NCBI RefSeq assembly: GCF_010726955.1
Contig: NZ_AP022603.1
Coordinates: 3,472,001 to 3,536,000, forward strand
From: Mycolicibacterium fallax
GTDB taxonomy: Bacteria > Actinomycetota > Actinomycetes > Mycobacteriales > Mycobacteriaceae
Length of the DNA stretch: 64,000 bases
Direction of reading: 5' to 3'
Shown one piece after another: positions 1-13,079 of the stretch (the stretch's first letter is position 1; each line of letters begins with the position of its first letter). A program made the translations under genes and the position numbers. Under the pieces are notes generated by a model. It had not been told where the DNA came from. It worked only from the letters and a program-made list of their open reading frames with translations, and ran no database searches.

Positions 1-321
1 GCGGCCAACGATCCGCGGGCGGTGTTATCGATCATCGAACTTTCGCACGCCAGCTACCGCAAGATGTGGCAGAACCTGGTGTGGGCGACCGGATACAACA
101 TCATTGCCGTGCCGTTGGCCGCTGGTGTGCTGGCCCCGATCGGGGTGGTGCTGCCGCCGGCTGCAGCCGCAGTGCTGATGTCGATCTCGACGATCGTCGT
201 CGCGCTCAATGCCCAGTTGTTGCGCCGCCTCGATCTGGACCCCGCCCGCTTGGCCAGCTCCCGACAGGCCACTGGCCGCACCTGCGCGAGCAGAGACGCC
301 GTAGTGAATACCCATGGCTAG
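1..321 (+). CDS. Heavy-metal (copper-type) P-type ATPase, C-terminal end only
   Basis: The reading frame is open from the first base, so this is the tail of a gene that begins outside the window. The visible 106 residues include the segment after the hinge domain ([12 protein letters not shown]) and the last pair of membrane helices ([17 protein letters not shown] and a second helix near [19 protein letters not shown]). This ending is characteristic of mycobacterial CtpA/CtpB/CtpV-like P1B ATPases, which export or load copper at the cytoplasmic membrane. Metal specificity cannot be read because the CPx helix is outside the window. The stop overlaps the start of the next gene by 8 bases, so the two are probably one operon. 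Confidence 0.85.
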
Positions 322-1159
322 ATGGTCCTTTCGTGGCTGGGCGGGTGCCGTCATCGCGGTCACGGTGGTGATGCTGGGGGCCTGCACTAGCCCGCCACCG
401 TCGGCGCCGACTCTGCAAGAGCCGGCATCCAGTGTGTCCCCGTCGGCACCTAGTGTGGCTTTGACGCCGGCGCTCGACCATGTGCACGGTCTGCATCTCG
501 ACGCGCAGGGGACGGTGTTGGCCGGCACCCACACCGGCTTGGTAGCGATCGACACCGCCGGTCGCACCGCACGCATCGGGGAATCCGACGACGACTTCAT
601 GGGGTTGACTGGAGTGCCGGGGACCGACCACCTGTTTGCTTCCGGACATCCTGGAGCGTCGAGCTCGATGCCCAACCCGTTGGGGTTGATCGAAAGCACC
701 GATGGTGGGCGTAGCTGGGCGGCGAAGTCGCTGACCGGCGAAGTCGACTTTCACGCCCTGGCCACCGATGGCGAGGTTCTCGTCGGCTTCGACGGACGAA
801 CAGGCCTGTTGATCTCCACCAACGCCGGCATGGACTGGACCGCCGGCGCCGCATTGGCCGCCGCCGCCCTCGCCGTCACCGACACCGGAATATTGGCGCT
901 CACCCGCAATGGACTGCAGCGCAGCACCGACACCGGGCACACCTTCACCGCCGTAGTCGATGCCCCGAGCCTGGCGTTGTTGTCCGCGGCAAAAAGCGGA
1001 TCCTTGTGGGGGGTCGATACGGACGGCACTACGTGGCGCAGCAGAACCGGCCAGGTGTGGGAGCAGCGCGCGGCTGTCGGGCGGGTTGAAGCACTGTTAG
1101 CCATCGACTACGACACCGCCTACGCCGCAAACGCCCAAGAGTTCTACACGTTGGACTGA
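314..1159 (+). CDS. Lipoprotein with beta-propeller/BNR-like repeats (F510_1955-type glycosylhydrolase-like family)
   Basis: The 281-residue product has an N-terminal hydrophobic segment ending in a lipobox (VVMLGAC, Cys24), so it should be a lipid-anchored exported protein. The mature part has propeller-type repeats with Asp-box-like strands ([24 protein letters not shown]). An early DHVHGLHLD motif is typical of proteins annotated as F510_1955-family glycosylhydrolases. No enzymatic activity is established for these as far as I know. It overlaps the P-type ATPase gene by 8 bases. I infer a joint role in metal handling at the cell surface from that linkage only. Confidence 0.75.
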
Positions 1160-1230
1160 AAGCGGTCGTTGCTGTCTAGCACGCCCGTCGGCGCCTTGAG
1201 CGAGAGATCGGCGCCACGATCGCACCCCGC

Positions 1231-1246
1231 ATCTACGTAAGTAGAT
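1231..1246. promoter_or_regulatory. Palindrome ATCTAC-GTAA-GTAGAT, possible operator
   Basis: Two perfect 6-base inverted arms are separated by 4 bases, followed by TAGTATG. It lies between the lipoprotein gene and the broken YncE-like gene. The shape fits a small dimeric repressor (for example BlaI/CopY, ArsR or TetR types), but no regulator gene for it is visible in the window. It may be the leftover control region of a lost operon. Confidence 0.4.
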
Positions 1247-1259
1247 AGTATGTCCGTAG

Positions 1260-1844
1260 GCGGACGGCACGGTGTCGGTGTACCGGGCAGGTGACCTGCA
1301 GCCGATTGGGCAGATTACTGTTGGCGGGATGCCGCATGGTCTGCGGCCCTCGGCCGACGGCTCGATCGTCGTGATCGCCAACACCACGGAGGGCGCACTG
1401 GACGTGATCGACCCCGCAACTGACACGGTATTGGGTTCTGTTCCGGTGGGCGCGAATCCAGCCCAGGTGGCGGTCACGGCGGACGGGCGGTTCGCGTATG
1501 CCGGAATCACCGATCCGTCCGCGGTCGTCAAGGTGGATCTGGACGCCTACACGGTGGTCGCCGCCGCTCCGGTCCCCAGCGACCCCGTGCAGGTGTATCT
1601 GACACCCGATGAGGCCACCGTCATATCGGCTGATCAGGGCACCCGCGATGAACCAGGCAGCACGGCGTCGTCGATCGATACCGCGACAATGACGGTCCGC
1701 AGCACCGCGACCACTGGTTCAGGACCACACGGTGTGGTCGTGGATACCGCTGGAACGCGGGCATGGGCGACGGCTTCGACAACACACCAGGACGTGACAG
1801 TTCCACCTCAGCCGAGTGCTCGACCCGAAATGGCAGCGCGGTGA
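1260..1844 (+). pseudogene. YncE/YVTN-type beta-propeller protein, truncated at both ends
   Basis: The frame opens after a stop at 1257 and enters the middle of a YVTN repeat (DGTVSVYRAGDL). Repeats continue (GGMPHGLRPSADGS, VPVGANPAQVAVTADGR, TTGSGPHGVVVDTAGTRAW). Intact relatives carry more blades and an N-terminal export signal, both missing here. After about 1770 the sequence no longer resembles the family (TASTTHQDVTVPP), which suggests a frameshift or recombination joint. A GTG at 1272 could in principle start a 190-residue fragment. I judge it a remnant. Its position just left of the recombinase genes may mark the boundary of inserted DNA. Confidence 0.65.
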
Positions 1845-1903
1845 GGAGGATTGCCGTTGTGCGGCACTGCTCGCCTGTCTGGCGATACCGATAAGCTGCG
1901 TGG

Positions 1904-3043
1904 ATGCCGTCACCCGCCGTCCGCGCGGCCGGTCCGGACACGGAGCTGGATCGGCGCACACAGGACAGGATCCTGCGCGCTGCGGCGGCTGCGCAGTCCC
2001 CGGGAACACGACGGGCTTACGACAGCGGGTGGCGCCGCTTCGAGAACTGGTGCACCCGCCAGGGGCATCAATCATTGCCTGCCGCACCGGCTGTGGTCGC
2101 CGCGTATCTCGTCGACGCCGCAGACACCGTTGACAGTGACGGCCGGCACTCTTACGCCCCAGCGACGTTGAGCAAGTGGGTTGCCGCGATCTCCGACCGC
2201 CACCGCCGAGCGGGCGCCGACACCGTGCCGACGCAGCATCCCGTGGTGCTGTCGACAATCGCCGGCATCCGGCGTGAGTACGCCGCCGCGGGGGACCGTC
2301 CCCGCTCCCCGAGAGCACCGCTGCTCACCGAGGACGTCCTGAGCATCGTCTCCGCTGCTCGCGAACAGGTGCTCGGGTGGCCAGACGCCGTGCATGAGCG
2401 CCGAGATACGGCTCTGCTGCTGATGGGCTTCACCGGCGCCTTTCGCCGCAGCGAGCTGGTCGGGCTTACTGGAGCCGACGTGGTCCTGCACCCCCTCGAC
2501 GGCGTCCACGTCCACATCCGCCGCTCCAAGACCGACCAGGAAGGGCAGGGGCGGGTACACGCCCTGCCCCGCGCCGAGGACCCGAGACGCTGCCCGCCGT
2601 GCGCGTTCGCCCGCTGGGCGCAGGTGGTCGCAGCTTTCGACGACGGCGGACGCTCGGCGGTGATCGCGCTGCTTTCGGGGGAGGACTGCGGCTTGGTCGT
2701 TCACGTGTGCCAATCGCCGGGGCAGCGTGAAATCCGAGCCGGCCGTGCGATTTTCCGGGCCATCGCGCAGAACGGGAATCTGTCGGAGACGGCCATGTCG
2801 GGGGCCGCGGTGCACGCCGCGATCCGCCGCCGCGCTGCCCGAGCCGGCTTCCCGGCATCCGCGGTGGCTCGACTGGGCGCGCACAGTCTGCGTTCCGGGT
2901 TCGTGACGCAGGCGTTCCGCAACGGTGCCGATGCGCACGCGATCATGCGCCAAACCGCCCACCGAACCCCGGCCATGGTGGAGCGCTACGCCCGGGAAGA
3001 GGCGCCGTTGGTCGGCAACGCTGTCACGTCCCTGGGACTATGA
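1904..3043 (+). CDS. Tyrosine recombinase/integrase with complete catalytic set
   Basis: The 379-residue product has an N-terminal SAM-like core-binding domain (about residues 18-125) and a C-terminal catalytic domain (about 140-370). All six conserved positions can be assigned: Arg181 (FRRSEL), Lys209 (SKTDQEG), His327 and Arg330 (HSLR), His353 (TAHRTP) and Tyr362 (ERYAR). It should be an active DNA strand-exchange enzyme. Its stop overlaps the next gene as ATGA, so the two are translationally coupled. A tRNA-Ser gene lies 1.6 kb downstream, a common integration target. Its element, phage or otherwise, cannot be named from sequence alone. Confidence 0.85.
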   Translation: MPSPAVRAAGPDTELDRRTQDRILRAAAAAQSPGTRRAYDSGWRRFENWCTRQGHQSLPAAPAVVAAYLVDAADTVDSDGRHSYAPATLSKWVAAISDRHRRAGADTVPTQHPVVLSTIAGIRREYAAAGDRPRSPRAPLLTEDVLSIVSAAREQVLGWPDAVHERRDTALLLMGFTGAFRRSELVGLTGADVVLHPLDGVHVHIRRSKTDQEGQGRVHALPRAEDPRRCPPCAFARWAQVVAAFDDGGRSAVIALLSGEDCGLVVHVCQSPGQREIRAGRAIFRAIAQNGNLSETAMSGAAVHAAIRRRAARAGFPASAVARLGAHSLRSGFVTQAFRNGADAHAIMRQTAHRTPAMVERYAREEAPLVGNAVTSLGL

Positions 3044-4035
3044 CGGCCCCCGCGGATTCACGCAGTCGCGCTGTGTGGCAGCTGTTCACCGACTGGTGCA
3101 CGGCACTGGGTCACCGCGCGCTTCCAGCCGACCCGACGGTGCTGGCGCAATTCATCGCCGCCAACTACGCCGCGGAGGGAACCCAGCGGCGCCGGGTCGG
3201 CGTCGTCAACGCGGTTCACCGACGATCCGGGCATCCCGAGCCGGGACGAGCCGAGACTGTCCGACAGCTGATCGATGCCCGCCGCGGTGTGAAAGCAGAG
3301 ATGCGTGGCGCTGCCGCCGCCGAGGTGATCAGCCGCCTACCTGAAATTGGTTGGCCTACCGCGCTGTTCGCCCGCCGTGACGCGATGCTTCTCGCGCTGG
3401 CGGCCGCCGCGGTTCCCCTGCAGGCCATCGCTGAACTACGTGCCGGTGATGTCCAGGCCGACATGCTCAGTGACTGCCTGGTCATCACAGCAAACGGGGT
3501 AACGTTCAGAACGCCGGCCAGTTTGGCGCAGGGGGATGTATCGCCGAGGAAGGTTCTCGCACAGTGGCTGCGGGTCCGTGGCATTCAGCACCACATCCCT
3601 AGCCCGCGCTGGCTGGCCGCCTACCTGCGGGGCGAACCGGTGCCTCCGGTCGGTGCGGTGCCCGATGAGCTGGCGATGCTGACGCCGATCGACCGCTGGG
3701 GAGCGACGCCGTGGCTGCCCACACCGCTGCGTCCGGCCTCGGTGTCGCACATCGTGAACTCACACCTCAACGGCTGGGCCAGACCGCACCCGGCGATCAC
3801 CGGAACACCCGAACGTGACCCGATATCACCCGCACTGCCCGAGCCGCCAGCGGAGGCCGCACTACTTGATCCCGCCAGCTTCACACGTGGAGTGGCCGCC
3901 CGGCGCCGCGCGGCGGGGGTGCTTGGCGGTGTGACCGATGTGCTTGACGACGTCGAGAGTCGCGCTGACCGGATCCTCGGGGACCTACTACGTCTACTCG
4001 AGGACCCCGGCCTTTCGGAGCAGCGCCGAGGATGA
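3040..4035 (+). CDS. Catalytically dead tyrosine-recombinase-like partner protein
   Basis: The 331-residue product begins with a core-binding-like region resembling the upstream integrase (WQLFTDWCTALGHRALPADP against WRRFENWCTRQGHQSLPAAP). It continues into a degraded catalytic fold (ALAAAAVPLQAIAELRAGDV), where the Arg of the usual G-x-R-x-S-E motif is absent. No HxxR or catalytic Tyr motif is visible. The C-terminus (about 285-331) is charged and could form a helix or coiled coil (LDDVESRADRILGDLLRLLE). The 4-base overlap with the integrase suggests coupled expression and a regulatory, structural or DNA-binding role in the same recombination complex. That role is inference. Confidence 0.65.
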   Translation: MTAPADSRSRAVWQLFTDWCTALGHRALPADPTVLAQFIAANYAAEGTQRRRVGVVNAVHRRSGHPEPGRAETVRQLIDARRGVKAEMRGAAAAEVISRLPEIGWPTALFARRDAMLLALAAAAVPLQAIAELRAGDVQADMLSDCLVITANGVTFRTPASLAQGDVSPRKVLAQWLRVRGIQHHIPSPRWLAAYLRGEPVPPVGAVPDELAMLTPIDRWGATPWLPTPLRPASVSHIVNSHLNGWARPHPAITGTPERDPISPALPEPPAEAALLDPASFTRGVAARRRAAGVLGGVTDVLDDVESRADRILGDLLRLLEDPGLSEQRRG

Positions 4036-4071: not shown

Positions 4072-4323
4072 CTAGTTGTCCTCGAGTATCCGCACGCCGT
4101 ATCCGGTGTGGCTGGTGTCGGCGCAGCCGTATCCGGCCGCCGCGACGGCGCTGAGGATGTCCTGCTCCTCTTCGCCGAGCTTGCGGAGCTCGGTGATCGC
4201 GTGCTGTTCGGCGGCTTGCCGACTGGGGTGCGCCGACCGGCCGAAATACTCACCGTTGCTGATCTTCTGGAATTCACAGATGAACATGCAGCGGACGGTG
4301 ACACGCACAGCGCCAGCCACCAC
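4072..4323 (-). CDS. Small hypothetical protein
   Basis: The frame encodes up to 83 residues. The Met at position 12 (start near 4290) may be the better start because the compositional pattern of a folded protein begins there (MFICEFQKISNGEYFGRSAH). It has no membrane segment or signal peptide and no family I recognise. It faces the recombinase pair convergently and precedes another small gene on the same strand, like the short accessory genes often found in integrative elements next to tRNA genes. Coding status rests on amino-acid composition only. Confidence 0.45.
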   Translation of the reverse strand: MVAGAVRVTVRCMFICEFQKISNGEYFGRSAHPSRQAAEQHAITELRKLGEEEQDILSAVAAAGYGCADTSHTGYGVRILEDN

Positions 4324-5068: not shown

Positions 5069-6688
5069 GTGAGAGGTGGTGGCTGGAAAGTGAGGTCAAG
5101 GGTGGAGCAGTTCGCGGCGATCCGCCGGGATTATCGGGTTGAGGGTTTGTCGATCCGGGCGCTAGCCGATAAGTATCGGGTGCATCGACGCACGGTGCGC
5201 CAGGCGTTGGAATCGGCAGTGCCGCCGCCGCGCAAGACGGTGCAGCGGGTGGCGCCCCGGTTGGAGCCGTTCAAAGCGGCGATCGATGAGATGCTGCGTT
5301 CGGATCTGGATGCACCGAAGAAGCAACGCCACACCGCCCGAAGGGTTTTGGCGCGTCTGGTCGATGAACATGACGCGGATGGTTTGTCGTATTCGACGGT
5401 GCGCGACCACATCCGGAAACGTCGCCCGCAGGTCGCGGCGGAAGCGGGCCGGGCGCTGGAAGCAGGGTTCGTGCCTCAGACATATCGCCCAGGTGCCGAA
5501 GCCGAGGTCGACTTCCACGATCTGTGGGTGGTGCTGGCTGGGGTGAAGACCAAGACCGCGCTGTTCACGATGCGGTTATCGTTCTCGGGGCGCTCTGCGC
5601 ATCGGGCGTTCGCGACCCAAGGCCAGGAGGCGTTCCTGGAAGGCCATGTCTATGGGTTCGACCGGCTCGGCGGCGTGCCGGTCGACAAGATCCGCTACGA
5701 CAACCTCAACAGTGCGGTCAAGCAGGTGCTGTTCGGACGATCTCGTCAGGAAAACGAGCGTTGGATCGCCTTCCGGTCGCACTACGGTTTCGAAGCCTGG
5801 TACTGCCAGCCCGGTCACGACGGCAGCCACGAGAAAGGTGGTGTGGAGGGCGAGGGTGGCCGATTCCGGCGCAACCACTGCGTGCCGATGCCGGTGGTCG
5901 ACTCCATTGACGAGCTCAACGCTGCGCTGGCCGCTGCTGATGACGCTGACGATCACCGTCGGATCGCCAACCGCGCCAACAGTGTTGGCCAGGACTGGGA
6001 TCTGGAAAAGCTGGCACTGCAGCCGGTCACTGACGAGCCGTTTGATACGGCGTTGACGGTGACCCCGCGGGTGGATCGGTATGCCCAGATCATGGTGCGC
6101 TGCAATCAGTATTCGGTGCCGGCCCGGTTCATCGGGCACCGGCTGCGGGTGAAATTGTCGGCTTCCCACGTCACCGTCTATGACCGCGCTACCGTGGTGG
6201 CGCGGCATCCCCGCGCGGTCGGCAAGGGCACCAAAGTGCTGGACTTGGACCACTATCTGGAGATCCTGACCCGCAAACCCGGGGCGCTGCCCGGGGCCAC
6301 CGCGTTGGCTCAGGCACGGGCAGCCAAGATGTTCACCACCGAACACGACGCCTGGTGGGCTGCCGCCCGAAAGGCCTATGGCGACGCCGCGGGCACCCGT
6401 GCTCTGGTGGAAGTGTTGCTGCTGCACCGACACTTGGATCGGGTAGATGTGTTGGCCGGCATCAGTGCAGCGCTGTCGGTGGGCTCGGCCAATGCTGATG
6501 TGGTGGCGCTGGAAGCCCGCAAGGCCGCCGAACGCCGCACCGGCGCTGACCGGCATCAGAACAGCTCCGATGTCGCGGCGCAGGCGCTCCTGCTTGCCCA
6601 CCACCACCTCGGCGCCGCGATCGTCGATGAGCGTCCGCTGCCGTCGGTGGCCCCCTACGACACCTTGCTGGGCCGGCAGAGCTCATGA
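5069..6688 (+). CDS. istA: IS21-family transposase IstA
   Basis: The 539-residue product starts with a helix-turn-helix region (SIRALADKYRVHRRTVRQAL). Its RNase H-fold catalytic core has a DDE triad: AEVDFHDLW, KIRYDNLNSAV and GGVEGEGGRF each supply one acidic residue. IstA binds the terminal repeats and catalyses strand cleavage and joining. Several GTG starts are possible. The first, at 5069, is used here, and the GTG at 5090 gives a protein 7 residues shorter. It is coupled to istB by a 4-base overlap, and the frame is uninterrupted. Confidence 0.92.
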   Translation: MRGGGWKVRSRVEQFAAIRRDYRVEGLSIRALADKYRVHRRTVRQALESAVPPPRKTVQRVAPRLEPFKAAIDEMLRSDLDAPKKQRHTARRVLARLVDEHDADGLSYSTVRDHIRKRRPQVAAEAGRALEAGFVPQTYRPGAEAEVDFHDLWVVLAGVKTKTALFTMRLSFSGRSAHRAFATQGQEAFLEGHVYGFDRLGGVPVDKIRYDNLNSAVKQVLFGRSRQENERWIAFRSHYGFEAWYCQPGHDGSHEKGGVEGEGGRFRRNHCVPMPVVDSIDELNAALAAADDADDHRRIANRANSVGQDWDLEKLALQPVTDEPFDTALTVTPRVDRYAQIMVRCNQYSVPARFIGHRLRVKLSASHVTVYDRATVVARHPRAVGKGTKVLDLDHYLEILTRKPGALPGATALAQARAAKMFTTEHDAWWAAARKAYGDAAGTRALVEVLLLHRHLDRVDVLAGISAALSVGSANADVVALEARKAAERRTGADRHQNSSDVAAQALLLAHHHLGAAIVDERPLPSVAPYDTLLGRQSS

Positions 6689-7473
6689 ACGTCCCCCGTC
6701 GCACCGTCACCGACCAAGCCGCGGTCGCGGCGATCGAACAGGGTGCCCGCATGCTGCGACTGCCCACGATCCGCGACCGCTTCTCCGAGATCGCCGCCGC
6801 CGCCGAACGCGAACAACAGTCCTACCTGGGTTTCCTCTCGGAGCTGATGATCGCTGAATGCGAGGACCGCGACCGCCGTCGGGCGCAGCGCCGCATTCAT
6901 GACGCCGGGTTTCCTCGGCTAAAACGGCTCGACGAGTTCACCTTTGAGGCCAACCCGGCAATCAACCCGGCGGTGATCGGAACCCTGGCCACCTGCGCCT
7001 GGGTCAAAGCCGGCGAACCATTGTGCTTGATCGGTGACTCCGGGACCGGCAAAAGCCACCTGCTGATCGGACTGGGAACCCTGGCCGCCGAGGCCGGCTA
7101 CCGCGTCCGCTACACCCTGGCCAGCAAGCTGGTCAACGAGCTCGTCGAAGCCGCCGACGACGCCCAACTGAGTAAGTTGATCACCCGCTACGGCCGGGTC
7201 GATCTTCTGCTGATCGACGAGCTGGGCTACCTGCAATTAGACCGCCGCGGCGCGGAGTTGCTGTTCCAGGTCCTCACCGAACGCGAAGAACGCTCGGCGG
7301 TGGCGATCGCCTCCAACGAACCGTTCTCGGCGTGGACCAAAACCTTCACCGACCCACGGTTATGCGCGGCCATTGTCGACCGGTTGACCTTCGCCGGGCA
7401 GATCATCGAAACCGGCACCAGCTCATACCGACTGGCTCATGCCCGCAAACGACGCACCGCCAGCACAACCTGA
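6685..7473 (+). CDS. istB: IS21-family ATPase IstB
   Basis: The 262-residue AAA+ protein has a Walker A motif (GDSGTGKSH, about residue 113 on) and a Walker B motif (DLLLIDELGYL, about 173 on). An N-terminal helical part contacts the transposase. IstB is the helper ATPase that selects target DNA and stimulates IstA. It overlaps istA as ATGA, the standard IS21 arrangement, and appears intact. Confidence 0.92.
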   Translation: MNVPRRTVTDQAAVAAIEQGARMLRLPTIRDRFSEIAAAAEREQQSYLGFLSELMIAECEDRDRRRAQRRIHDAGFPRLKRLDEFTFEANPAINPAVIGTLATCAWVKAGEPLCLIGDSGTGKSHLLIGLGTLAAEAGYRVRYTLASKLVNELVEAADDAQLSKLITRYGRVDLLLIDELGYLQLDRRGAELLFQVLTEREERSAVAIASNEPFSAWTKTFTDPRLCAAIVDRLTFAGQIIETGTSSYRLAHARKRRTASTT

Positions 7474-8996: not shown

Positions 8997-9009
8997 CGGG
9001 CCGGGCCTG

Positions 9010-10413
9010 CTATGTCTGCTGATCACTCGCCTCATGCTGGTCGGCGAAGGCCAGGACTCTCGGATCCAGCTGGGAGAACGACGGCGTGCGAAAACGTCTG
9101 GTGAAGCCTGGCCCGGTCTGAAGTGCGTAGAGTCCGCGCCGTCCGTTGAATCGCTTGATCAGAGTGCGCACTGTCGCAGCGTCTTCGGCCACCTCGGCGG
9201 CGGGGTACATGATCGCGTCGATTTCATCCTGCAGCGGACCAAACGCGGGCTGCAGGTCTTTGATCATGTCCAGCACGCTTGGGTCTTCGGTCATAGCCTC
9301 TAGCTCAGTTCGCTTGTAGGCCTTCTTCATAACCCCGGATGACTTCGACATCCAGTAGCGGCTCATGCCGAGTTCGATGGTCGCGTCGCCGTGCAGCCTG
9401 GCAGTCATCGAGACAGTGAACGCGTCCATATTCACGTGCAACATCACATGGCGAAGTTCGATGAGCCAGCGGTAGGCGAAACAGTTGGAGTAAATGTCAT
9501 TGAACAGCTTCTTGACCGCGAGGTGCTCATCTGACCCGTCATCAAACTTGTGCTTGACCTGGTAGAGCGTCTGATCCTGATGGCTGTGCACGGCGCTCGT
9601 AAATGCGATCAGCGCCGACCGGATGCGCCGGATTCGCTTGTGCGGCTCCTCCATGTTCGAAAGTGAGAACGTCTGGTCTTGGATCTCGCGGAGCACGCTG
9701 CAAACCACGTCGACGAACGAGTCGCTCATGTCGGAGACGTAGCTGAATAGATCCTGGTCGAGCTGGCGCTTGAGCCGGTCGTAGGCCTCCGCGTATCGCT
9801 TGTGCTCGTCCTCGGTGAACTCGCATACCTGCGTGAAGATGATGTCCGCCTCAACTGCTGGGTCCTGGTATCCAAGGATCGCTCCGAACGGGTGGGCGAT
9901 CGCGTACTCGTCGTCCGCCTCGGCTTCCGCGACGCGGTTGGCCGCAGCGTCCTGGGCTTGCTTGAACGTCGCTTTGACAGCCTCGACACGGCTGGCGATG
10001 ACCTCGTCGGTCGGCGTCCCGGTGTCAAGCCATGTCTGCGCGTCATTCCGCACGCCCTCCAATGCCCCAACTAGGGATGCTTCTGCGGCTGCACGGCTGA
10101 CCCGTTCATCCAGCGCCGCTGCCATCGTCACTTGTGCAAAGGTGCGCACCACCTCAAGCACTACGAGTGACGCTGCGGAGTCGGGCACGGGAGGCCGCTC
10201 GACCAGCGCGCTCTGCCATAGATCGCCTGCCGCTTCGCAGAAGTCGATGGCCTTTTCACCGGGCAGAGCCGGGAGGTCGACGATGTTGTGTTTTGTCAAT
10301 AGGTTTCCGGCCGTTTGAGCGCTAATTTTCCGGCCATGTTGTTGGGATTTCCGGCCATGTGAGCGCTGCGGTTGGGCGATGGGCTGGGTCATGGTCGGAT
10401 TGTGTTGCGGCAC
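9010..10413 (-). CDS. HEPN-like protein of unknown function, 5' end replaced by an insertion sequence
   Basis: The frame encodes 467 residues, but about the first 42 lie within the neighbouring insertion sequence. The native part begins near residue 43 (NIVDLPALPG), so the original N-terminus is lost. The body is helical and acidic. Residues 314-326 (YRWLIELRHVMLH) contain R321-x4-H326, the RX4-6H signature of HEPN ribonucleases, in a context like the LRNY-x2-H segments of some uncharacterised HEPN-type proteins. No second domain is recognised. It sits between a terminase fragment and IS elements, where antiviral genes are common, but a defence role is inference. It may be non-functional. Confidence 0.5.
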   Translation of the reverse strand: MPQHNPTMTQPIAQPQRSHGRKSQQHGRKISAQTAGNLLTKHNIVDLPALPGEKAIDFCEAAGDLWQSALVERPPVPDSAASLVVLEVVRTFAQVTMAAALDERVSRAAAEASLVGALEGVRNDAQTWLDTGTPTDEVIASRVEAVKATFKQAQDAAANRVAEAEADDEYAIAHPFGAILGYQDPAVEADIIFTQVCEFTEDEHKRYAEAYDRLKRQLDQDLFSYVSDMSDSFVDVVCSVLREIQDQTFSLSNMEEPHKRIRRIRSALIAFTSAVHSHQDQTLYQVKHKFDDGSDEHLAVKKLFNDIYSNCFAYRWLIELRHVMLHVNMDAFTVSMTARLHGDATIELGMSRYWMSKSSGVMKKAYKRTELEAMTEDPSVLDMIKDLQPAFGPLQDEIDAIMYPAAEVAEDAATVRTLIKRFNGRRGLYALQTGPGFTRRFRTPSFSQLDPRVLAFADQHEASDQQT

Positions 10414-10675: not shown

Positions 10676-11406
10676 TCATTTCATGAGGGCGTGGCTGACG
10701 CGGTAGGAGTCGCCGCGGAAGCGTAGGAGCCGTCCGTGGTGCACGAGGCGGTCGATGATCGCCGCGGCCATGTTGTCGTCTCCGAACACCGTTCCCCACT
10801 TCGAGAATTCAAGGTTGGTGGTGATGATGAGGCTGCGTTTTTCGTAGGCCTCGGAGATGACCTGGAACAGCAGCCGCGCTCCTTCGGGGTCGATCGGTAG
10901 GTAGCCGAGTTCGTCGAGGACCAGCAGCGGGATTTTGGCGAGGGTGGCCAGCTCCCGGTCGAGGCGGCCGGTGTCTTTGGCGCGGCGCAGCGTCATCACC
11001 AGGCTGGAGGTGGTGAAGTAGCGGGCCGGGATGCCGCGCTGGCAGGCTTCGGCGGCCAAGGCGGTGGCCAGATGCGTTTTGCCGGTCCCGACATCGCCGA
11101 AGAGGATCAGGTCTTGGGCGTGGTCGAGGAATTCCAGGTCGGCGAGCTGCTGGCGTCCGTAGCCGTCGGGGAACCCGACGGCGGTCCAGTCGTAGCCGTC
11201 GAGGGATTTGGCTGCGGGCAGCCGGGCGGCGGTCAGCAGCCGGGCCCGCCGGGAACGGGCCCGGGAGTCGTTCTCCGCGGTCAGCATCCCGTGGAGATAC
11301 TCACGCTGGCGCGGGTGGCCTTGGTCGCCCATTCCTGCAGCACCGCCACGGTCAGATACGCCTGCCGGCCCGCGGCGACGACATCGGCGACGCTGACCGC
11401 GCTCAC
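10676..11406 (-). pseudogene. istB: IstB of the second IS21 element, one frameshift
   Basis: The GTG at 11406 overlaps the istA stop (GTGA) and begins a normal IstB N-terminus (SVADVVAAGRQAYLTVAVLQ). Near 11310-11318 the frame breaks, and the rest continues in another frame (PRQREYLHGMLTAENDS). The later part has Walker A (FGDVGTGKTHLA) and Walker B (LLVLDELGYLPID) intact. A 218-residue product starting at 11332 could still be made but would lack part of the N-terminal helical domain. A sequencing error is an alternative, but istA beside it is also broken. Confidence 0.75.
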
Positions 11407-12904
11407 GCCGACACCTGCCCGGCGTCAGCGGCGGCCATCGCGGTTTGGTCCAGTGCTGTGGCCTCGGCGATGGCGAGGGTGTCGTAGACGCTCAGGTCCA
11501 CGGCCGAGGCCAGGGGTTCGGCGCCGGCGGCGATGCGCCGGGCCAGCATGCCGACCGCGGCTGGTTCCGCGGCGCCGGTGGCGATGACGGTCTCCGCGGC
11601 GATGATGGTGTTGCCGAAGCCCGCTGGGCCGGCCGCCGCGTGGATCGCGGCGAGCATGTCACGGCGCTCCCGGACGGCGGCGGCGTCGAGCCAGTCCCGC
11701 ACCGGGTCGCTGACCAGGGCGCGGACCGGGGAGTTGCCCCAGGTGCCGGGCTTGGCCGCCAGCAGCGGCAACAGTGCCACCGGGTCGAACACCGTCTCGG
11801 TGGTGTTGGTGTAGGCCCGCGGCAATGAGATCACCGGGTGGCCGTGGGCATCGAGGAACTCGATGCGGTCAAAACACTCCGACGGTGACCGTCTGGGCGG
11901 CCATCGCCGGCCCGGCGCAGTAGGAACGGCCCTCGACGAGCAGACTGCCGGTCTTGTCGGTGCGCCGCGCCACATAGCGCACCGGGTCGAACCCGACACC
12001 GGGCAGCGCCAGCAGCGCGGCCCGGTCGGCGTCAAACAGTTCACTGATCGGGGTCTGCTTGCGGTAATGCCCCGTGGCGGCGAGCTCCTCGCAGCGGGCC
12101 AGCAGCATCGCGTTGAGCCCGGACAAGCTCTCGGCCCGGGTTCGGGGACCATCAGGTTGCGGCGCAAGAACCCCACCGCGTTCTCCACACTGCCCTTCTC
12201 ATGCCCGGAATACGGGTTGCAGTACCGCGCCGCACACCGATAGTGCGCGCGGAACGCCAAACAGCGTCGATTCGACGACCTTCTCCCCGCGACGGCGCCC
12301 CGCCCCGGCGGCGTTGTCGAAAATCAGCTCCCGCGCCGCGCCGCCGATGTGCTCGAAGATCACCCGCAGGCCATGGCACACGCTCTCAGCAGTTTCCCCC
12401 GGATAGGCCTGGACATAGCGCATGTTGGAGTGCGGGAAGGTGACCACCAGCACGTGCAGCACCTGCATCACCCCGGCGATCACCGCTTGGGCCTGCCCGA
12501 AGTCGACCTGCCCGACCCCCGGCGGCCACACCAACTCGGAGAACCCTGCCGCGCGCGGCGCGCGGCCCGGTAGGCCTTCACATAGCGCTGCACCGCCGAA
12601 TACGACCCCCCATACCCGTGTTCGGCGACCAGCCGGTCACAGACCCGCTGGGCAGTGTGGCGCTGCTTGCGGGCCGACCCTCATCCTCGGCCAGCCACTC
12701 ATCGATCACCGACGTGAACCCGGTCAGCACCGAAGCACCCGGACGCCGATGAATCACCGGCGGCTTCGGTGAGAAATCCTGCACGGCAATGTATTTCGCG
12801 ACCGAGTCGCGGGAGATCCCCAGATCCTTGGCGATCTGGCGGGCCGAAACACCGGCAGCGTCGAGCTTCCGGATCTGTTCTTGCATCGTCATAGCTATCG
12901 TCAT
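11403..12904 (-). pseudogene. istA: IstA of the second IS21 element, multiple frameshifts
   Basis: The start (MTIAMTMQEQIRKLDAAGVS) leads into a helix-turn-helix (SARQIAKDLGISRDSVAKYI) but the frame is lost after EWLAEDEG near 12680. Homology resumes in other frames: VVTFPHSNMRYVQAYPGETA with a catalytic LIFDNAAGAG (about 12300-12534), then YSGHEKGSVENAVGFLRRN (about 12160-12210), then LFDADRAALLALPGVGFDPV (about 11990-12050), and a C-terminal part to 11403. At least four disruptions make it inactive. Confidence 0.8.
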
Positions 12905-13079
12905 CTGCTTTCCGGTTCTCCCCTTCCACGAGCCGCTGCACAACCGCAGCAGCACCGCGAGAGAACCTACGAAGGGACACACCACCGCAGCACCGACTGG
13001 CCGGATTCTTACCGCTGAAATGGCAGGAAACCAGCCGCGCAGCTGGCAGGAAAACCCCGCCGAAACGGACTACCTATAG

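What the first reader, a model, noticed from the sequence alone, without database searches (positions are those of the whole stretch)
1904..4035. Two-gene recombinase module: active tyrosine integrase coupled to a catalytically dead sister
The first protein keeps all six catalytic positions (R181, K209, H327, R330, H353, Y362). The second shares the N-terminal core-binding region but lacks the Arg, HxxR and Tyr motifs and has a charged helical tail. The ATGA overlap suggests they act together. A dedicated non-catalytic partner could confer site choice or directionality, and I do not know a described system of this composition.
Basis: partly seen in the sequence, partly recalled or inferred. 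Interest (0 to 1): 0.72.

Follow-up and report, generated by a model that had tools for sequence, protein, structure and literature searches.

The report
Active recombinase with a dead partner
Two neighbouring genes encode a DNA-cutting recombinase and a shortened relative that can no longer cut but is kept by evolution beside it, mostly on plasmids of soil actinobacteria, where the pair probably helps to separate joined DNA circles.

Summary
In detail: 1904-3043 (I) is an intact tyrosine recombinase and 3040-4035 (D) is its paralogue without R, K, HxxR or Y. D is neither decaying nor private to this genome: 43 related proteins, 113 plasmid records, 81 of 401 family genomes. It directly follows I in 54 of 68 loci I selected and is under purifying selection (median dN/dS 0.26, 61 pairs). 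Both proteins are Cre-like; D keeps the core-binding domain and the first half of the catalytic domain, then a long helix. In many relatives a candidate core site (covarying inverted arms, 6-nt spacer) lies upstream of I. In two Rhodococcus transposons the order is repeat-tniABQ-site-I-D-repeat, so site-I-D stands where Tn5053 has res-tniR. Best reading: a Cre-type resolution module in which D is a non-cutting DNA-binding or assembly subunit. Dead tyrosine-recombinase-fold partners are already described (Tfp of SE elements, GinC of GInts), so this is a new variant of a known kind. Against: 28 of 97 genomes with I have no D, and the window copy has no detectable site; it looks like the end of a tRNA-array element beside an IS21. 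D's role and the site's use are untested.

The parts
1904..3043 (+). I: active-type tyrosine recombinase, 379 aa, Cre-like
   Evidence: catalytic residues invariant in 30 of 30 aligned relatives; Cre first in PDB sequence search
3040..3043 (+). ATGA overlap of I stop and D start
   Evidence: NTGA-type overlap in 26 of 54 compact loci
3040..4035 (+). D: catalytically dead, truncated paralogue of I, 331 aa
   Evidence: 43 homologues
3052..3786 (+). D residues 5-249: core-binding domain and first half of catalytic domain
3871..4002 (+). D residues 278-321: long predicted helix replacing the catalytic C-terminal half
1..1903 (.). Upstream region: NO recombination site of the kind found in relatives; holds two ORFs (314-1159; 1272-1844, weak YncE-like beta-propeller match below the curated cut-off)
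   Evidence: negative
4072..4323 (-). 83-aa ORF; 4079-4287 is 73.9% identical to DNA in the tRNA-array loci L160 and L161
4672..4758 (-). tRNA-Ser(gct), probably last remaining tRNA of an array element
   Evidence: 89-94% identical to the tRNA nearest D in L004/L162, L160, L161
5069..7473 (+). IS21-type element (istA-like 5069-6688, istB-like 6685-7473) that follows the tRNA
   Evidence: PF22483 and PF01695

Best explanation
I and D form a two-gene, Cre-type site-specific recombination module. I does the cutting; in most relatives it is taken to act on a core site just upstream of its own gene (arms CGnnAA and TTnnCG around six nucleotides, with a conserved GTCAC-containing stretch to the left). 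D is a duplicated I that lost the catalytic half and gained a helical tail; it binds DNA and/or I in the synaptic complex as a non-cutting subunit that sets assembly or direction. The task is most likely resolution: of plasmid multimers, and of cointegrates of the Tni transposons that carry the module in the res-tniR slot. SHOWN: paralogy, loss of catalytic residues, conservation and order of the pair, purifying selection on D, the conserved site and its covarying arms, the Tni position. INFERRED: that I acts on this site, that D joins the complex, that the outcome is resolution. The window copy has intact I and D but no recognisable site.
For: D directly follows I in 54 of 68 selected loci and keeps order and strand when 1.5-13 kb separates them (18 loci). 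D dN/dS 0.17-0.42, median 0.26, in 61 pairs; I and D identities correlate 0.80, 0 of 2000 permutations as high. D and I both find Cre, a plasmid-prophage dimer resolvase (role recalled), first in the PDB (fold). Site upstream of I on the same strand: within 300 nt in 53 of 94 I genes, farther in 12; no hit at E <= 0.01 in 1.85 Mb of reversed sequence. Arms covary: 19 double-change cells against 6.0 in shuffles, 0 of 500; slid controls lower. D is on 113 plasmid records of 72,556 (some of the weakest are ordinary integrases). tni genes stand directly before I on its strand in 15 of 68 loci (my count); L006 and L050 read repeat-tniA-(B)-Q-site-I-D-repeat with the serine resolvase outside; Tn5053/Tn402 read tniABQ-res-tniR (PMC7765201, passages).
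Against: Nothing shows recombination, binding or I-D contact. 28 of 97 genomes with I have no D at the cut-offs used, and solo I genes can carry the site, so D is not needed for whatever they do. 29 of 94 I genes have no site upstream by the model, including the window, and L010 and L047 have it after D in the other orientation. In one search two of five measures show no excess (pairs with double change 2 against 1.9; pair types 6 against 5.9) and one pair is unpaired in 21 of 30. A serine recombinase gene cluster occurs in 12 loci, so the pair need not be the resolvase there. No 5-bp target duplication was seen. In the split clade dS of I (0.7-1.0) exceeds that of D (0.25-0.5) for most of the same pairs, so their histories are not fully shared. 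The Cre superposition has rmsd 9.9.
Confidence: 0.55

Rival explanations
1. I-D is the integration and excision module of a mobile element (as in SE, GInt or Tn554-like elements), D being needed for excision or integration, and resolution is not its job.
For: Many plasmid records listed share with L069 only a block of about 2.3 kb from the D stop to the left end of the site, in other surroundings; genes lie between I and D, or between site and I, in many loci; in mycobacteria the pair sits beside tRNA arrays on likely mobile DNA; dead partners are known in SEs and GInts.
Against: No pair of ends, no empty site and no target were found (attempt failed); the site is usually single and next to I; contexts are mostly plasmids, which need no integrase.
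Confidence: 0.22
2. D is a transcriptional regulator, like the phage repressor MrpR: it binds the palindromic region upstream of I and controls I, taking no part in recombination.
Confidence: 0.15
3. D is a decaying recombinase with no function.
For: All catalytic residues are gone; some copies elsewhere are broken (internal stops and fragments among the matches).
Against: dN/dS 0.17-0.42 in all 61 pairs; 29 invariant positions in 42 sequences; co-occurrence; retention across long insertions.
Confidence: 0.03

Closest known systems
Tfp of SE elements and GinC of GInts (PMC10214605, passages read)
   Same: A tyrosine-recombinase-fold protein without the RHRY residues, encoded in an operon with active recombinases.
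   Different: There two active recombinases and an auxiliary protein (Srap or GinD) go with it; hosts are Gamma- and Betaproteobacteria. Here one active recombinase, actinobacteria, an upstream core site. No sequence of Tfp or GinC was at hand, so homology was not tested.
Cre recombinase
   Same: Closest solved structure and sequence for both I and D.
   Different: Cre works alone; here a dead paralogue accompanies the active enzyme, and the candidate core has a 6-nt spacer (loxP has 8, recalled).
res-tniR of Tn5053/Tn402 transposons (PMC7765201, passages)
   Same: Site and recombinase genes follow tniABQ inside the terminal repeats.
   Different: TniR is a serine resolvase (recalled); here a tyrosine pair. 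In four loci the tniA-side end, not the opposite end, is next to the serine recombinase.
MrpR / YopR phage repressors (PMC10516654, passages)
   Same: Tyrosine-recombinase fold that no longer recombines and binds DNA.
   Different: Full-length fold with K and Y kept, a phage master repressor; D is truncated and sits with an active paralogue.
BIM and RIT elements, Tn554-related elements (PMC3414803, passages)
   Same: Tyrosine recombinases in fixed gene pairs or trios.
   Different: RIT and Tn554-type proteins are reported with catalytic motifs; the second BIM protein is not a tyrosine recombinase.

Membership tests
Tyrosine recombinase (I) | R, K, HxxR, H/W, Y catalytic set | tested here: met
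   Invariant in 30 of 30 aligned sequences; PF00589
Tyrosine recombinase, catalytic (D) | R, K, HxxR, H/W, Y catalytic set | tested here: not met
   region from HxxR on absent
Tyrosine-recombinase fold (D) | Core-binding domain plus catalytic-domain fold | tested here: met
SE / GInt element | Two active recombinases plus dead TR-fold protein plus Srap/GinD | tested here: not met
   In the 54 compact loci one I and one D are adjacent; no second active recombinase is part of the conserved pair
SE / GInt element | D homologous to Tfp or GinC | not tested
   Sequences not at hand; accession lookup failed
Tn5053/Tn402-type transposon (some carriers of the pair) | tniA, tniB, tniQ genes | tested here: met
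   Pfam Mu-transpos_C, TniB, TniQ for L006; same gene clusters in other loci
Tn5053/Tn402-type transposon (some carriers of the pair) | About 25-bp inverted terminal repeats | tested here: met
   Both ends in L006 and L050; one end before tniA in 13 loci, allowing up to 7 mismatches of 26, without its own null; the 6-mismatch pattern gave 0 in reversed sequence
Tn5053/Tn402-type transposon (some carriers of the pair) | 5-bp target duplication | tested here: inconclusive
   None seen in L006 or L050 (inner repeat compared by eye); the literature notes it can be absent
Tn5053/Tn402-type transposon (some carriers of the pair) | res plus serine resolvase tniR | tested here: not met
   In L006 and L050 site-I-D is in that place and the serine recombinase lies outside
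Resolution system | Recombines two direct copies of a core site | not testable with these tools
   needs an assay

The most novel reading that the evidence does not exclude
I and D assemble as a mixed tetramer in which D always occupies one arm of each core site, so only one strand per site is cut. The exchange stops at a half-completed junction that replication must finish, which makes resolution one-way without any excisionase. A built-in dead subunit would then be a general means of making a reversible recombinase irreversible.
Probability: 0.12. Interest if true: 0.8.

Novelty: new variant of a known kind. Interest (0 to 1): 0.57.

Why it matters
It offers a minimal system, one active recombinase and one dead paralogue, for asking what dead tyrosine-recombinase partners do; for Tfp a deletion could not be obtained (PMC10214605, passages). 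It supplies a candidate site to test. It gives a candidate function to plasmid tyrosine recombinases, for which a 2012 survey said it could not find the families that resolve cointegrates and multimers (PMC3414803, passages). And it shows Tni transposons in which a tyrosine pair stands in the place of the serine resolvase.

Tried and rejected
tRNA attachment site: not a general feature. Of 60 loci scanned only L004 has tRNA genes and L058 a tmRNA; the mycobacterial ones are clusters. I did not search for attachment repeats.

Junction palindrome: GGAATTGCATCnGATGCAAC (up to 3 mismatches) lies 15 nt after the I stop in five of 73 loci scanned (L040, L064, L075, L082, L134) and nowhere else in 1.2 Mb. 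In L075 and L082 a pair of recombinase-like genes follows it that resembles by size the Tn554-related elements of PMC3414803; the longer one has no Pfam hit. It may be an insertion target. Unexplained; not taken as the site of I.

Phage origin: no D in 50,697 phage records. Defence system: no PADLOC hit.

Sphingomonad plasmid hits: the two of three that were listed cover residues 13-91 and are annotated as integrases.

Wider class: 46 of 394 genomes matched the D profile, but in 23 of 25 loci from other families the match scores better, or only, as an I-type integrase; L180 and L189 have a D-like gene next to I.

Orphan sites: two in G290 are one, duplicated by contig overlap; L209, L212, L213, L216 and L217 have no I or D in the DNA held. 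Unexplained.

Empty site: L207 shares L069's flank but the match starts 34 nt outside the block, so it does not show an insertion.

I structure: folded without an alignment by my choice, pLDDT 35.7, discarded.

Full report
WHAT IS THERE. The window holds two overlapping genes, I (1904-3043) and D (3040-4035). D has no match in four family libraries. Profile comparison makes it a paralogue of I over I residues 38-308, E 4.4e-18. It has lost the first arginine (41 of 42 sequences), the lysine hairpin and everything from HxxR on.

CONSERVATION. D has 43 homologues at E <= 1e-3. tblastn finds it in 113 of 72,556 plasmid records, 96 of them Rhodococcus, at E <= 1e-5, of which at least two are ordinary integrases, and in none of 50,697 phages. 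Of 401 genomes of the family, 125 match at E <= 1e-8; many weak ones may be I genes, so I use 1e-12 afterwards: 81 have D, 97 have I at E <= 1e-60, 69 have both, 12 D alone, 28 I alone. In the genus 4 of 148 genomes, the window's included, have D. In 2 of 25 loci from other families (L180 and L189, the latter identical to a protein named Agromyces subbeticus) a D-like gene lies next to I.

ARRANGEMENT. Of 68 loci that I selected, 54 are compact, 6 split, and 8 have no complete I in the DNA held; 26 of the 54 have an NTGA-type overlap. With further loci fetched, 18 split ones (two of them the same locus) have I and D on one strand, in one order, 1.5-13 kb apart, and most of the genes between have no relative in another split locus. 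On a tree of 79 distinct I proteins 48 are compact, 18 split, 13 without D in the DNA held; split ones fall in about seven places, and D-less ones are nested among paired ones. Where a close compact relative exists, the insertion lies at the I/D junction (L075, L141, L142, L143, L092; for L082 the I side only).

SELECTION. In 61 pairs with D identity 0.70-0.97 the median dN/dS is 0.26 for D (range 0.17-0.42) and 0.12 for I (12 loci dropped; pairs not independent; simple counting method). I and D identities correlate at 0.80 and 0 of 2000 permutations reach this. Against simple joint descent: in the split clade I has dS 0.7-1.0 where D has mostly 0.25-0.5.

SITE. A conserved block stood out upstream of I. 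A profile from 17 seeds, iterated once, finds it on the same strand within 300 nt upstream in 53 of 94 I genes, farther in 12, and not in 29 (near-identical copies are counted; L053 is counted as without although its hit precedes the true start; L010 and L047 have it after D in the other orientation). Reversed sequence gave no hit at E <= 0.01 in 1.85 Mb. In 30 aligned sites the core reads CGnnAA, six nucleotides, TTnnCG. Cells with double changes number 19 against 6.0 +/- 1.9 in shuffles (0 of 500), cells paired 86.7% against 76.8%, covariation 0.28 against 0.11, and slid controls are lower; but two of five measures show no excess, and pair 32-45 is unpaired in 21 of 30. A model of the site gives 63 matches in 20 of 22 chosen genomes, one of them a contig duplicate. 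Solo I genes can have it, so the site goes with I. A looser pattern tried on 16 loci finds four, two of them new (L042, L091), where one or two would be expected by chance.

TRANSPOSON CONTEXT. In 15 of the 68 loci tni genes stand directly before I on its strand (my count; some are near-identical). Thirteen have a terminal-repeat-like sequence 50-128 nt before tniA, at up to 7 mismatches of 26. In L006 and L050 an inverted second copy lies 39 nt after D: repeat-tni genes-site-I-D-repeat, with the serine recombinase outside. Tn5053 and Tn402 are described as tniABQ-res-tniR, resolved by res-TniR (PMC7765201, passages). Differences: no 5-bp duplication was seen, and in L007, L046, L056 and L060 it is the tniA-side end that lies by the serine recombinase.

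THE WINDOW COPY. Neither the profile nor the bare core pattern finds a site upstream of the window's I. I-D and the tRNA-Ser match L004, a Mycolicibacterium austroafricanum contig with tRNA genes, and L160/L161, where tRNA-Ser(gct) is the tRNA nearest D and 10 or 20 tRNAs are held. An IS21-type element follows at 5069. So the window copy looks like one end of a tRNA-array element that has lost its site and most tRNAs; mycobacterial tRNA arrays are described in PMC5966550 (passages). L160 and L161 lack the site as well. The only site found in this genome lies about 207 kb away, upstream of a second I with no D.

MECHANISM AND NOVELTY. I favour a resolution module with a non-cutting subunit; integration/excision and regulation remain open. 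The nearest described cases in kind are Tfp and GinC (PMC10214605, passages). I did not find the combination of one active recombinase, one dead paralogue, an upstream site and the tniR slot in the listings, of which I read passages of eight papers; these cover an open-licence library only. Related sightings without this interpretation exist: R. [quoted passage not shown]

Noticed in passing
L040, L064, L075, L082, L134, 15 nt after the I stop: A palindrome GGAATTGCATCnGATGCAAC found nowhere else in 1.2 Mb, in both compact and split loci; perhaps an insertion target.
   Followed up: partly
this genome, C1:3682943-3684067 (L159): A second I gene with its site upstream and no D; the only site found in the genome, about 207 kb from the window pair.
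   Followed up: partly
L209, L212, L213, L216, L217: Copies of the site without I or D in the DNA held.
   Followed up: partly
L181-L199: I-type genes of other actinobacterial families are followed, in many loci, by a conserved gene with the motif LGWLREKGDG..MVDEFRAAFQELIDAS and no D.
   Followed up: no
window 10676-12985: Minus-strand ORFs that look like a second, possibly broken IS21-type element; 10676-11332 clusters with the istB-like gene.
   Followed up: no
L007, L046, L056, L060: A serine recombinase gene lies next to the tniA-side terminal repeat, reminiscent of the res-site preference of Tn5053-type elements.
   Followed up: partly
window 9010-10413: 467-aa minus-strand ORF in a stretch of lower G+C (59.7% for 9001-10000).
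   Followed up: no
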